DNA of 43,605 nucleotides from an uncultured Ruminococcus sp. (GTDB lineage Bacteria > Bacillota > Clostridia > Oscillospirales > Ruminococcaceae), in NCBI GenBank assembly GCA_902780505.1, contig CACZFN010000014.1, positions 1-43,605 on the forward strand, written 5' to 3'. This document shows positions 39,963 to 43,168 of the stretch, piece after piece. How positions within the stretch are numbered: position 1 is the first letter of the stretch; every line of letters begins with the position of its first letter. Position numbers and translations under genes: made by a program. The notes under the pieces were generated by a model. It did no database searches. It was not told the origin of the DNA and saw only the letters and a list, made by a program, of their open reading frames with translations.

Positions 39963-40038
39963 GGAAGCTTAGCTCAGCTGGGAGAGCATCTGCCTTACAA
40001 GCAGAGGGTCATAGGTTCGAGCCCTATAGTTTCCACCA
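39963..40038 (+). tRNA. tRNA-Val (anticodon TAC)
   Basis: The acceptor helix GGAAGCT pairs with AGTTTCC. The anticodon loop CTTACAA gives TAC, reading GUA/GUG valine codons. GGTTCGAGCC T arm, CCA encoded at the end. Confidence 0.95.
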
Positions 40039-40040
40039 AT

Positions 40041-40117
40041 GGCCGGGTAGTTCAGTTGGTTAGAACGCCAGCCTGTCACGCTGGAGGTCGTGGGTTCGAG
40101 CCCCATTCCGGTCGCCA
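40041..40117 (+). tRNA. tRNA-Asp (anticodon GTC)
   Basis: The acceptor GGCCGGG pairs with TCCGGTC (two G-T). The loop CTGTCAC gives GTC. CCA is encoded. It starts two bases after tRNA-Val. Confidence 0.95.
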
Positions 40118-40124
40118 TTTTTCA

Positions 40125-40144
40125 GGAGTTTTTTCAAAAACTCC
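40125..40144 (+). other. Hairpin between tRNA-Asp and tRNA-Gly
   Basis: GGAGTTTT, TTCA, AAAACTCC: an 8-bp stem in the 30-bp spacer. There is no T run after it. It may guide RNA processing or be a relic of a terminator. Confidence 0.5.
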
Positions 40145-40147
40145 AAT

Positions 40148-40223
40148 GCGGATTTAGCTCATCTGGTAGAGCGCCACCTTGCCAAGGTGGAGGTAGCGAG
40201 TTCGAGCCTCGTAATCCGCTCCA
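40148..40223 (+). tRNA. tRNA-Gly (anticodon GCC)
   Basis: The acceptor GCGGATT pairs with AATCCGC. The loop TTGCCAA gives GCC, reading GGC/GGT. CCA is encoded. Confidence 0.95.
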
Positions 40224-40228
40224 TATCC

Positions 40229-40302
40229 GGCGCTATAGCCAAGTGGTAAGGCGTAGGTCTGCAACACCTTGATCCCCGGTTCAAATCCGGGTGGCGCCTC
40301 CA
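40229..40302 (+). tRNA. tRNA-Cys (anticodon GCA)
   Basis: The acceptor GGCGCTA-region pairs with TGGCGCC. The loop CTGCAAC gives GCA. CCA is encoded. The top pair of the anticodon stem (T-T) is mismatched, common in this tRNA type. Confidence 0.93.
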
Positions 40303-41132: not shown

Positions 41133-41600
41133 ATGAATAGAATAAGTAAGACAGAATTGCTTATATGGGTGGTTGCACTTGAACTTTTCGGCGCTGTGAG
41201 TGCACTTGCAGGCGGTAATTTCTCGGGGTATTATGAAACGCTTAAAACACCGCCGCTTTCCCCGCCTTCATGGCTGTTCCCGATAATGTGGGGGATCATA
41301 TATGCACTGCTCGGCGCTTCTGCTTATCTTGTGTTCAAGGTGTCGGGTAAAGCTGACAAAACCACAAAAAGTATATTTGCATTGCAGCTTGCGGTGAACT
41401 TTATGTGGAATATTATATTTTTCAGGTTCCACAGCCTTGTAATTGCGGCGGCAGTGCTGATAGTGCTCACAGTCCTTGTCGGTATTATGCTTCTTGATTT
41501 TTACAGGAAAGATAAACTTGCAGGGCTGATGAATATTATCTATCTTCTGTGGTGTTCGTTTGCTTGTTATCTGAATATCGGCATAGTTATACTGAATTGA
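41133..41600 (+). CDS. tspO: TspO/MBR family membrane protein
   Basis: A 155-aa protein with five membrane helices. Family signs are the WLFPIMWGIIYALLGASAYL stretch (helix 2), LAVNFMWNIIFF (helix 3) and LLWCSFACYLNIGIVILN at the C-terminus. TspO proteins bind porphyrins or related ligands, and the bacterial role is a stress-linked one. RBS AAAGGG lies 9 nt before ATG 41133. It ends at the bidirectional terminator at 41605. Confidence 0.92.
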   Translation: MNRISKTELLIWVVALELFGAVSALAGGNFSGYYETLKTPPLSPPSWLFPIMWGIIYALLGASAYLVFKVSGKADKTTKSIFALQLAVNFMWNIIFFRFHSLVIAAAVLIVLTVLVGIMLLDFYRKDKLAGLMNIIYLLWCSFACYLNIGIVILN

Positions 41601-41604
41601 AATT

Positions 41605-41640
41605 AAAAAGGACTTACGCGTTTTTGCGCAAGCCCTTTTT
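41605..41640. terminator. Bidirectional terminator between tspO and the Xre gene
   Basis: AAAAAGG-a-CTT...AAG-c-CCTTTTT with an inner CGC/GCG, giving a long stem with A and T tails. It can stop both converging transcripts. Confidence 0.85.
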
Positions 41641-41847
41641 CTATTCTTCTTCAAATGAAAAGATCTCCTCAACAGTTACACCGAAGACTTTAGCAATATC
41701 CATGGCAAGCTTTAGTGAGGGGTTGTACTGCCCCTTTTCAAGCCTGATTATAGTTTCGCGTCTTACCCCTACAAGTTCAGCAAGCTCGCCCTGCTTCATA
41801 CCTGTCTTTGCCCTGTATTCTCTGAGCCTTGTTATAAGCTCTGCCAT
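41641..41847 (-). CDS. Small Xre-family HTH regulator
   Basis: A 68-aa DNA-binding protein that is nothing but a Cro/CI-type helix-turn-helix ([19 protein letters not shown] at the start; [19 protein letters not shown] as the [20 protein letters not shown] following), and a short acidic end. I take ATG 41847, with GAGGAAG 6 nt upstream; the longer frame up to 41940 starts with 31 residues of no family pattern. Such 65-70 residue Xre proteins often sit beside small membrane proteins and repress their own operon. The three dyads upstream of the operon (42864-42943) are the natural candidates. A 113-bp gap separates it from the upstream membrane gene. Confidence 0.9.
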
Positions 41848-41960
41848 TATTCTTCCTCGCTTTCGCATCCGGTGCTGTCTTTTTCTATGATCAGGAAGAA
41901 TATGTTTTTCAGAAGTGAATGAAGACTTTGCACAAAGCACAGAATAAATATTAGGTTATA

Positions 41961-42431
41961 CTACGAAACAGAGAAGCCTTTGTTTTCATCAAAGCCGCTG
42001 AGTAAACACATTATAAAAATAATCAGCAAACCGACCGAAAACAGAGTAAGAAACGCTATGTTGCTCGCTTTGAGTATATCGTACCTTGCAAGGTCGTCGG
42101 CAGGTTCGGTCTTGTATTTGGAGGATTTGCTCGTGTTGAGTGCAAGGGCGGCTACCATAGACAGAAGTACAAACGGGAAAATGAATGTATTGATGCGGCT
42201 GCCCTTGATGCCGAAATATTCCGCAACTGATATCCAGCCCATACAAAGTGCAGTGGAAAGGCTTGAGAGCAGTTCGTAAAATCTGCTTTTTTTGAAAGTC
42301 ATAACAGGGCGCTTGTCAATGCGGAATTTTTCCCATTCGAGGTCTATTGCCGCCTGCCGCCTGACATCACGCGGGAGTGTTTTGTCTTTTGAACGGGATA
42401 TCAGCGTAATAAGTTTTTCGTTTGTCTGCAT
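41961..42431 (-). CDS. Small membrane protein of the Xre operon
   Basis: A 156-aa protein: a charged N-terminal part (about 55 residues, with KTLPRDVRRQAAIDLEWEKF), then four hydrophobic segments (roughly 52-70, 78-98, 120-143 and adjoining), joined by a basic loop with NTSKSSKYKTEPADDLARYD. I do not recognise a family; it is like DUF-type membrane proteins found with small Xre regulators. ATG 42431 overlaps the Shine-Dalgarno region within the upstream gene (GGAGG 7 nt upstream). It starts 2 bp after the neighbour's stop codon. Confidence 0.75.
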   Translation of the reverse strand: MQTNEKLITLISRSKDKTLPRDVRRQAAIDLEWEKFRIDKRPVMTFKKSRFYELLSSLSTALCMGWISVAEYFGIKGSRINTFIFPFVLLSMVAALALNTSKSSKYKTEPADDLARYDILKASNIAFLTLFSVGLLIIFIMCLLSGFDENKGFSVS

Positions 42432-42433
42432 AT

Positions 42434-42847
42434 TTATTCCTCCTCACCTTTACTGCCGGAAATATCAAAAATAACAAATAGCAGGCTTCTCAGTGCGATC
42501 GTGATAAATGCTGCGGCGGCAAAAATATTTGCCGGTTTTTTCACAACATCTTCGTAAATATCACCATCACCTGCACCGCTTCCGAGAAACGAGAATACAA
42601 ATAACATTGCGACAGCTATGATATATGAAATGCCGGTTGCCCTGCCGAGATTTGTCTTGGCAAGCTCATCGGGCTTTTCGAATTTTCCTGTTCCGAAAAA
42701 ATGTGACATAGAAAATGACATGATAACAAGAACCACATTTATAAGCCATGCGAATTTGTTCGGGATAAGTATAACGACGGCAAAAGCGGTGCATACTGTG
42801 AATACAACAATGTGCTTGTTTCGCAGATTTGTAATTAGTTTGTTCAT
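42434..42847 (-). CDS. Small four-helix membrane protein, first gene of the Xre operon
   Basis: A 137-aa protein: MNKLITNLRNKHIVVFTVCTA in the first helix (quoted in parts: MNKLITNLRN, HIVVFTVCTAFAV), two hydrophobic segments in the middle, including WLINVVLVIMSFSMSHFFG, and a last helix near IFAAAAFITIALRSLLFVIF, then a charged end (SGSKGEEE). I do not recognise it. The start ATG 42847 follows GGAGG by 5 nt; the longer frame to 42862 has no better RBS. It is followed without gap by a second membrane gene, and then by the Xre gene. Confidence 0.75.
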   Translation of the reverse strand: MNKLITNLRNKHIVVFTVCTAFAVVILIPNKFAWLINVVLVIMSFSMSHFFGTGKFEKPDELAKTNLGRATGISYIIAVAMLFVFSFLGSGAGDGDIYEDVVKKPANIFAAAAFITIALRSLLFVIFDISGSKGEEE

Positions 42848-42863: not shown

Positions 42864-42943
42864 GTGATTTATTTATCACCTTATGTGACAATAATATCAC
42901 AAAGCGGTGTGGCTGTCAATAGAAAAAGTGATGAATTTATCAC
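42864..42943. promoter_or_regulatory. Three matching 16-bp dyads around the Xre-operon promoter
   Basis: Plus-strand sites: GTGATTTATTTATCAC (42864-42879), GTGACAATAATATCAC (42885-42900) and GTGATGAATTTATCAC (42928-42943). All fit GTGAY-N6-RTCAC, 16 bp each. Start-to-start distances are 21 and 43 bp, close to two and four helical turns, so all three face the same side. The middle site covers the -10, the first lies in the leader, and the third is upstream of the -35. Confidence 0.8.
42891..42919 (-). promoter_or_regulatory. Promoter of the Xre/membrane operon
   Basis: On the minus strand, TTGACA (42919-42914), a 17-bp spacer and TATTAT (42896-42891). It is about 45 bp before the first ATG (42847). 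The -10 lies inside the middle dyad. Confidence 0.85.
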
Positions 42944-43047
42944 TTTTGTGGGTGTGAACAATTATCGGGGGCTCTGATTGTCACTTTTTAATGATAACGC
43001 CATTTGAGTTTATATAAAGTTCATAATTTATTAACCCAAAAACGTAT

Positions 43048-43076
43048 TGACAAATCATAAGAAAAGGAGTATAATA
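43048..43076 (+). promoter_or_regulatory. rRNA operon promoter P1
   Basis: TTGACA (43048-43053), 17-bp spacer, TATAAT (43071-43076): full consensus. Confidence 0.9.
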
Positions 43077-43139: not shown

Positions 43140-43168
43140 TTGACAAAAAGCAGCAAAGGTGATATAAT
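43140..43168 (+). promoter_or_regulatory. rRNA operon promoter P2
   Basis: TTGACA (43140-43145), 17-bp spacer, TATAAT (43163-43168): full consensus, 92 bp after P1. Tandem strong promoters are typical of rrn operons. Confidence 0.9.

What the first reader, a model, noticed from the sequence alone, without database searches (positions are those of the whole stretch)
42864..42943. Three helically phased dyads on the promoter of a small Xre/membrane-protein operon
Three 16-bp dyads share GTGAY-N6-RTCAC and are spaced 21 and 43 bp apart, about two and four helical turns. One covers the -10, one lies in the leader and one is upstream of the -35. The operon encodes two unrecognised membrane proteins and a 68-aa Xre regulator, the natural candidate to bind them. 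This suggests tight, cooperative autorepression of an undescribed membrane system. Operator-regulator pairing is inference.
Basis: partly seen in the sequence, partly recalled or inferred. Interest (0 to 1): 0.7.

Follow-up and report, generated by a model that had tools for sequence, protein, structure and literature searches.

The report
Conserved triple-operator promoter of membrane-protein operon
A Ruminococcus-like bacterium carries what looks like a small self-controlled switch: a short DNA-binding protein made from one operon with fast-changing membrane proteins, with copies of one DNA site at fixed spacing on its promoter; the arrangement recurs in many relatives and can be tested in the laboratory.

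Summary
Three exact GTGAY-N6-RTCAC dyads lie at the stated places, 21 and 43 bp apart, and chance does not give them. A scan of about 85,000 genomes for two dyads 21 bp apart, blind to proteins, found 78 loci; in 72 of 78 a close homologue of the window's Xre lies downstream on the same strand. The third dyad, not in the search pattern, sits at -42 to -44 in 68 of those 72. In the reverse, protein-first test, 23 of 25 assessable operons (the window's included) carry the dyad pair; the two that lack it are the two whose Xre recognition helix departs from RRETIIRLE. Operator-regulator pairing is thus strongly supported, not shown biochemically. Best model: Xre dimers autorepress the operon, and the membrane proteins release Xre on an envelope signal, as proposed for CylR1/CylR2 and SdpI/SdpR. 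That last step is inference. New variant of a known kind.

The parts
42864..42879 (-). Leader operator dyad, GTGATAAATAAATCAC on the - strand, between the -10 and the ribosome-binding site
   Evidence: exact match; counterpart at +21 from the -10 dyad (required by the scan pattern; seen protein-first)
42885..42900 (-). Core operator dyad GTGATATTATTGTCAC, contains the -10 hexamer
   Evidence: counterpart dyads in relatives found by protein
42928..42943 (-). Upstream operator dyad GTGATAAATTCATCAC, just upstream of the -35
   Evidence: counterpart at -42 to -44 in 61 of 65 plus 7 of 7 loci with the Xre, though not part of the search pattern
42969..42984 (-). Degenerate fourth dyad GTGACAATCAGAGCCC (2 mismatches), one half-site kept
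   Evidence: exact fourth dyad one base further up in G005 and G006
42914..42919 (-). -35 hexamer TTGACA
   Evidence: in relatives 54 of 65 exact and 11 of 65 with 5 of 6, 17-bp spacer in all 65; 7 of 7 exact
42891..42896 (-). -10 hexamer TATTAT inside the core dyad
42434..42847 (-). Gene 1: 137-aa four-helix membrane protein, short type; AGGAGG ribosome-binding site upstream
   Evidence: AlphaFold2 mean pLDDT 88.6; no curated family over cut-off
41961..42431 (-). Gene 2: paralogous membrane protein, long type, 156 aa; ended by an in-frame TAG before the last membrane helix of its relatives
   Evidence: relatives 185-194 aa; profile match runs through one TAG
41847..41960 (-). Residual open frame of gene 2 (37 codons and stop), overlapping the Xre start by one base
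   Evidence: no further stop; 73% identity to G004 after the TAG, 77% before it
41641..41847 (-). Xre/PbsX-type regulator, 68 aa, HTH only, recognition helix RRETIIRLE
   Evidence: HTH_3 E 4.8e-16; nearest solved relatives by sequence 9k3w and CylR2 1utx
41605..41640 (-). Terminator-like hairpin after the Xre gene, between it and the converging TspO-family gene

Best explanation
This is a self-contained autoregulatory switch of Ruminococcus-type bacteria. The 68-aa Xre protein binds, probably as dimers, to three dyads set on one face of the helix (21 and 42/43 bp apart). Two adjacent dimers cover the -10 and the start of transcription, and a third sits just upstream of the -35; together they exclude RNA polymerase from the operon's main promoter and hold it at a low level (inferred). 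The membrane proteins encoded before the regulator in the same operon are four-helix proteins whose conserved residues lie on the predicted cytosolic side (K-x-E-x-x-D-E-L loop and start of helix 3, end of the last helix, acidic tail), while the rest diverges fast. I propose that they hold or release the Xre protein according to an envelope signal, such as a membrane-active peptide or stress, so that the signal raises the amount of the membrane proteins. Shown by computation: promoter, dyads, their conservation, spacing, link to this Xre and covariation with its recognition helix. Inferred: binding, repression, cooperativity, topology. Conjectured: membrane signalling and its ligand.
For: Protein-blind scan: 72 of 78 loci lead to the same Xre. 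Third dyad at -42 to -44 in 68 of those 72, against a background of about 0.003 per offset measured in the 65 loci. Protein-first: 26 of 26 membrane-gene loci have the Xre, 23 of 25 assessable have the 21-bp pair (22 of 24 without the window), and the two misses have RRETIVHLE and RRETIGNLE instead of RRETIIRLE. The same trend appears in the DUF3796-linked Xre set; jointly Fisher p = 6e-6, not corrected for kinship. AT-centred dyads are nearly confined to this operon in its own genome. Membrane family: D 73 of 73 and E 71 of 73 in the loop; Xre 79% median identity against 29% for the best membrane pair over 1,953 pairs among 63 of the 65 loci. Precedents read in passages: CylR1/CylR2 (PMC3709268) and SdpI/SdpR (PMC1626106).
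Against: No binding, expression or interaction data. No signal or linked biosynthetic operon was found; the divergent neighbour in the window is a 16S rRNA gene. Without the AT centre the dyad has 17 places in the genome against 8 for the reversed control, so further targets are not excluded. Two of seven DUF3796-linked RLE-type loci (L169, L170) lack the pair and the one VNLE-type locus (L182) has a weak one; the DUF3796 set alone is not significant (p = 0.10). A further upstream dyad, present in 34 of 65 loci, is often not at a whole number of turns (-90, -95, -102). A broken gene 2 in the window suggests that at least that copy can be dispensable. Neither membrane model matches a solved fold.
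Confidence: 0.6

Rival explanations
1. Plain homeostatic autoregulation: Xre represses its operon through the dyads, but the membrane proteins are effectors (immunity, export or membrane repair) and do not signal to Xre.
For: All operator evidence fits equally. Fast divergence and 1-4 copies per operon suit immunity-type effectors.
Against: Of the columns filled in at least 60 of 73 members, all that are conserved at 60% or more, apart from the start Met, lie near the predicted cytosolic face, which suggests a shared cytosolic partner; without relief the arrangement would be silent.
Confidence: 0.25
2. The dyads belong to another regulator (CRP/FNR-like or a global factor) and the Xre is a bystander.
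For: GTGA...TCAC resembles the CRP half-sites (recalled); some dyad pairs occur without this Xre nearby (G074).
Against: The spacer is N8 between GTGA and TCAC, not the N6 of CRP (recalled). AT-centred dyads are nearly confined to this operon in its own genome. Operator presence follows the Xre recognition helix.
Confidence: 0.06
3. Toxin-antitoxin-like unit: membrane proteins harmful in excess, Xre the antidote and autorepressor.
For: Small Xre after membrane genes; autorepression with several operators is common in such units (general knowledge).
Against: Copy number 1-4 with a conserved Xre. Matches of this Xre to antitoxin models in the 25 of 32 families shown stay under their cut-offs. 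The membrane genes' own Pfam matches are weak and under cut-off.
Confidence: 0.07
4. The dyads are by-products of an AT-rich promoter or RNA hairpins, not protein sites.
For: All three sit in an AT-rich promoter.
Against: 0 of 20,000 local shuffles have two dyads; position and spacing of the third kept in 68 of 72 loci.
Confidence: 0.02

Closest known systems
CylR1/CylR2 of Enterococcus faecalis (regulatory pair of the cytolysin operon)
   Same: CylR2 is a 66-aa HTH-only protein, second nearest solved relative of the window's Xre by sequence (E 1.7e-10); CylR1, with three predicted membrane helices, is transcribed with it (PMC3709268 passages).
   Different: The Cyl pair controls a divergent biosynthetic operon; here the dyads serve the operon itself and the divergent neighbour is an rRNA gene. 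CylR1 was not compared by sequence. Recognition helix differs (SRQTI against RRETI).
SdpR/SdpI of Bacillus subtilis
   Same: Autorepressor and polytopic membrane protein in one operon; SdpI holds SdpR at the membrane when the ligand is present (PMC1626106 passages).
   Different: SdpR is ArsR-type (recalled), not Xre; no SdpI family match appeared for the window's own proteins or among the 25 of 66 families shown.
DUF3796 (PF12676)-Xre pairs of Firmicutes
   Same: 15 of 15 DUF3796 matches, in 12 of 119 family genomes, have an Xre of this type close by on the same strand (two of the 15 share one Xre, so 14 distinct loci); same helix core RRETI; 6 of 14 loci have dyad pairs at exactly 21 bp, up to 3 mismatches in all, and between 10 and 60 bp only one pair at another spacing (44) was seen; profile similarity of the membrane proteins, hhalign probability 94%, E 9.6e-8 for a single comparison.
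   Different: The window's genome has no DUF3796 match; six DUF3796-linked Xre proteins have GNLE helices and no such dyads.
DUF2178 (PF09946) and DUF6442 small membrane proteins
   Same: 6 and 5 of 73 members match at E <= 0.01, best about 3e-5.
   Different: Unrelated membrane families match as well (TctB 6e-6), so this is no proof; no DUF2178 match in G000.

Membership tests
Small Xre/PbsX-type HTH regulators (CylR2-like) | about 66-70 aa, HTH domain only, no sensor domain | tested here: met
   68 aa, HTH_3 over residues 8-62; residues 4-67 align with 2-65 of CylR2 1utx
CylR1/CylR2-type two-protein systems | membrane protein encoded with the small Xre | tested here: met
   window operon; 65 of 65 loci have 1-4 membrane frames between promoter and Xre
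CylR1/CylR2-type two-protein systems | membrane partner homologous to CylR1 | not tested
   CylR1 belongs to a toxin locus and was not fetched
CylR1/CylR2-type two-protein systems | controls a divergent or linked target operon | tested here: not met
   divergent neighbour is the 16S rRNA gene; no further target evident among the AT-centred dyads of the genome; looser sites were not followed up
SdpR/SdpI | ArsR-type repressor with an SdpI-family membrane protein | tested here: not met
   repressor is HTH_3/Xre; no SdpI match for the window's genes at E <= 1
DUF3796 (PF12676) | match over Pfam's cut-off of 24.8 bits | tested here: not met
   no match in G000; not among the 25 of 66 families shown for 73 members
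DUF3796 (PF12676) | acidic DE motif between helices 2 and 3, Xre close by | tested here: met
   DEL here, DER in DUF3796; profile alignment pairs them; Xre close by
DUF2178 (PF09946) | match over cut-off | tested here: inconclusive
   6 of 73 at E <= 0.01, best 2.4e-5; none in G000
Autorepressed operon with cooperative operators | binding and repression by the encoded protein | not testable with these tools
   only conservation and covariation available

The most novel reading that the evidence does not exclude
One conserved repressor with a fixed three-operator promoter serves a changing set of membrane receptors: 1-4 paralogous four-helix proteins per operon, gained, lost and broken between species, each keeping the same cytosolic docking motif for the same Xre but differing elsewhere. 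It would be a modular one-repressor, many-receptors envelope-sensing (perhaps bacteriocin-immunity) switch typical of Ruminococcus and its close relatives.
Probability: 0.3. Interest if true: 0.72.

Novelty: new variant of a known kind. Interest (0 to 1): 0.52.

Why it matters
If true, it adds a signalling module widespread in Ruminococcus and its relatives, with a predicted operator, a predicted regulator and a new membrane family, in gut and rumen bacteria where (to my knowledge) few switches are understood. It gives a clean comparative test of how a small Xre protein is controlled by membrane proteins, a step that PMC3709268 (read in passages) calls not currently understood for CylR1/CylR2. 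The recognition-helix and operator pairs found here allow prediction of targets for the wider DUF3796-Xre class.

Tried and rejected
Gene 1 as query: 1 of 61 genomes (itself) and no confirmed locus in genome contigs; single sequences are too divergent, the alignment worked. A regulon: the AT-centred pattern GTGAYNWWWWNRTCAC gave 4 places in G000 (3 at the operon) and 1-8 in ten relatives, reversed control 0-2. Of the 15 places outside such operons (my count), seven were read: six lie inside long reading frames (L151, L161, L215, L216, L217, L219) and one (L214) just behind a different small HTH gene; eight were not read. No regulon is claimed, and none is excluded. The G032 hit (L038) has four stops in the matched frame and lies in flagellar-looking coding sequence (my reading): rejected as chance. 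The Xre paralogue at G000:C11 (L040) has another helix (SRQTI) and no dyads in front of its genes beyond one inside an upstream reading frame and one two-mismatch-type match: used as a contrast. L115 and L138 in the pattern scan have no -35, no upstream dyad and no Xre hit in their genomes: chance. L133 has the membrane gene but its contig ends before an Xre; L088 has the dyads with a different Xre (SRETICRIE) directly after them; L091 and L093 are DUF3796-Xre operons. Structure searches of both membrane models against the PDB gave nothing at E <= 0.001.

Literature: searches for DUF2178 with Xre, DUF3796, DUF2178, CylR2-like terms, YozG and DUF6442 (its listing was swamped by the place name Yozgat, so it settles nothing), Ruminococcus Xre operators and autorepressing Xre with small membrane protein showed no description of this system; the library is open-licence papers only. 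One passage notes a DUF3796 gene with an adjacent HTH gene (PMC11983580, passage read). PMC5774710 was seen in the listing only.

Full report
What is there. On the - strand near the right end of the window lies a short operon: gene 1 (42847-42434, 137 aa), gene 2 (42431-41961, 156 aa) and an Xre-type regulator (41847-41641, 68 aa), followed by a terminator-like hairpin. The best-scoring promoter on that strand is TTGACA-17-TATTAT. Chance does not explain them: no window shuffle of 400 had even two exact dyads within 80 bp, and no local shuffle of 20,000 had two. Gene 2 ends at an in-frame TAG; the frame stays open for 37 more codons up to the Xre start, with 73% identity to the G004 relative after the stop and 77% before it, and intact copies exist in relatives (185-194 aa). 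This looks like a recent break or an assembly error. Gene 1 and gene 2 are paralogues: a profile of gene 2 proteins finds gene 1 at E 2.4e-6, and an alignment pairs their K-x-E-x-x-D-E/D-L stretches.

Conservation, protein first. With the gene 2 alignment as query, 26 of 396 genomes of the same family have a match, the window's own among them. The best locus of each was examined: 26 of 26 have an Xre of the same type on the same strand, and 23 of 25 assessable loci have a dyad pair at exactly 21 bp with at most two mismatches in all; the 26th, G004, was dropped because its contig ends at the gene start. Without the window it is 22 of 24. Sister species G005 and G006 have four dyads (GTGA-N8-TCAC) spaced 42, 43 and 21 bp. 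R. albus KH2T6 has three at 43 and 21 bp (genome G187, named through its contig length of 161,685 bases).

Conservation, DNA first. A pattern of two dyads 21 bp apart with an AT-rich -10, knowing nothing of proteins, matched 78 stretches in about 85,000 genomes; 55 of the 78 titles name Ruminococcus (counted by eye), the rest mostly unnamed Clostridia or Oscillospiraceae. In 65 of 78 the Xre follows within 3 kb at E < 1e-30; seven more were cut only by the stored stretch, the Xre being found within 3 kb in the same genome and overlap of the two stretches verified: 72 of 78. The other six: L133 (membrane gene, then contig end), L088 (a different Xre), L091 and L093 (DUF3796-Xre operons), and L115 and L138 (chance). 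The third dyad was not in the pattern, yet it sits at -42 (25), -43 (35) or -44 (1) in 61 of 65 with at most one mismatch and in 7 of 7, with a background of about 0.003 per offset. The -35 was not in the pattern either: TTGACA, 17 bp from the -10, in 54 of 65 exactly and 11 of 65 with one change, plus 7 of 7. With the spacing left free between 16 and 46 bp, 29 of 396 family genomes have an exact dyad pair; by my reading 20 of these lie at such an operon (18 at matches, two read), with spacings of 21, 42 and 43 bp and two extra ones (17 in G417, 37 in G399). The other nine were not examined except G074. The reversed control pattern matched in 1 of 396. A further upstream dyad is present in 34 of 65 loci but its distance varies (-70 to -112, commonest -102, -90 and -101), often not a whole number of turns, so only the three are well phased.

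Who reads the dyads. All 65 loci have RRETIIRLE in the Xre helix, but they were chosen by their dyads. The fair test is protein-first: the two assessable loci without dyads, L066 and L068, are the two whose helix reads RRETIVHLE and RRETIGNLE; the other 24 read RRETIIRLE. In the DUF3796-linked set, RLE-type helices have the 21-bp pair in 5 of 7, GNLE-type in 0 of 6, and the one VNLE-type locus has a weak pair. Fisher: p = 0.003 for the first set, 0.10 for the second, 6e-6 jointly; the second set was allowed three mismatches, the first two, and kinship is not corrected for. That this stretch is the recognition helix rests on the known Xre fold and the alignment with CylR2. The Xre paralogue of the window's genome has SRQTI and no such dyad array. 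In the window's genome, AT-centred dyads are nearly confined to this promoter: two exact W6 matches, both here; with the slightly wider centre, three here and one elsewhere. The looser pattern without an AT centre has 17 places, three of them here, against 8 for the reversed control, so single further targets cannot be excluded. A local autoregulator is the simplest reading.

The membrane family. Across 73 members (71 chosen at 75% identity or less from 100 roughly called ORFs, plus the window's two) the D of the DEL stretch is invariant and the E is kept in 71. Among columns filled in at least 60 members, apart from the start Met every one conserved at 60% or more lies in that loop and the start of the third helix, or at the end of the last helix and the acidic tail, all on one predicted side (cytosolic if the N-terminus is inside: inference). 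AlphaFold2 gives four long helices and one short one for gene 1 (mean pLDDT 88.6) and, for the long type of G006, the same four plus an N-terminal helical hairpin (92.6). No solved fold matches. Pfam and NCBIfam give no match over a cut-off for the window's two. Profile comparison with DUF3796 gives E 9.6e-8 and 94% probability for the 73-member alignment and 2.5e-6 and 89% for the gene 2 alignment alone, each for a single comparison. Of 65 operons, 35 have one membrane frame before the Xre, 23 two, 5 three and 2 four (in L075 the fourth is only 83 codons long). Over 1,953 pairs among 63 of the 65 loci (L086 and L118 dropped for want of a called ORF) the Xre core has a median identity of 79%, the best membrane pair 29%.

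How it most likely works. Two Xre dimers side by side on the -10 and leader dyads, and a third upstream of the -35 on the same face, would shut the promoter (inference from position and spacing). Because the regulator is last in its own operon, its level is self-limiting. The fixed cytosolic motif beside a fast-changing rest suggests that all copies meet the same partner, most simply the Xre, while facing different signals. [quoted passage not shown] The window's Xre is closest by sequence, among solved structures, to a PbsX-family protein (9k3w) and CylR2.

Verdict. It is a new variant of the small-regulator-plus-membrane-protein switch, not a new kind.

Noticed in passing
window 43047-43075 and 43140-43168 (+): Two perfect sigma-70 promoters (12 of 12 hexamer matches, 17-bp spacers) in tandem before the 16S rRNA gene that runs off the window end; the Xre operon is divergent from it.
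   Followed up: partly
window 39963-40302 (+): tRNA cluster Val-Asp-Gly-Cys; ORFs listed here on the - strand are probably shadows of the tRNAs.
   Followed up: yes
window 41133-41600 (+): TspO/MBR family protein (E 7.4e-38) converging on the Xre operon; a similar-looking gene (by eye) lies within 3 kb downstream of the Xre gene in G004, G005 and G006, with one or more genes between.
   Followed up: partly
L211 2033-2069, L212 2003-2039 and L213 1977-2023 (genome G074): GTGAY-N6-RTCAC dyad pairs at 21 bp (L211, L212) or 31 bp (L213) without a close Xre of this type in the 4 kb read (L213 has a longer, distant one, E 3.9e-5); L211 precedes other membrane-looking genes. Another regulator may read the same site.
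   Followed up: partly
L088 1042-1078 (+): Same two-dyad element directly before a different small Xre (SRETICRIE helix), followed by a longer membrane-looking protein; no four-helix gene between.
   Followed up: partly
L168-L182: 15 of 15 DUF3796 matches have an Xre of this type close by on the same strand (two share one Xre, so 14 distinct loci), splitting into RLE-helix and NLE-helix classes; the operator of the NLE class is unknown, and a quick look for another 21-bp palindrome pair found none.
   Followed up: partly
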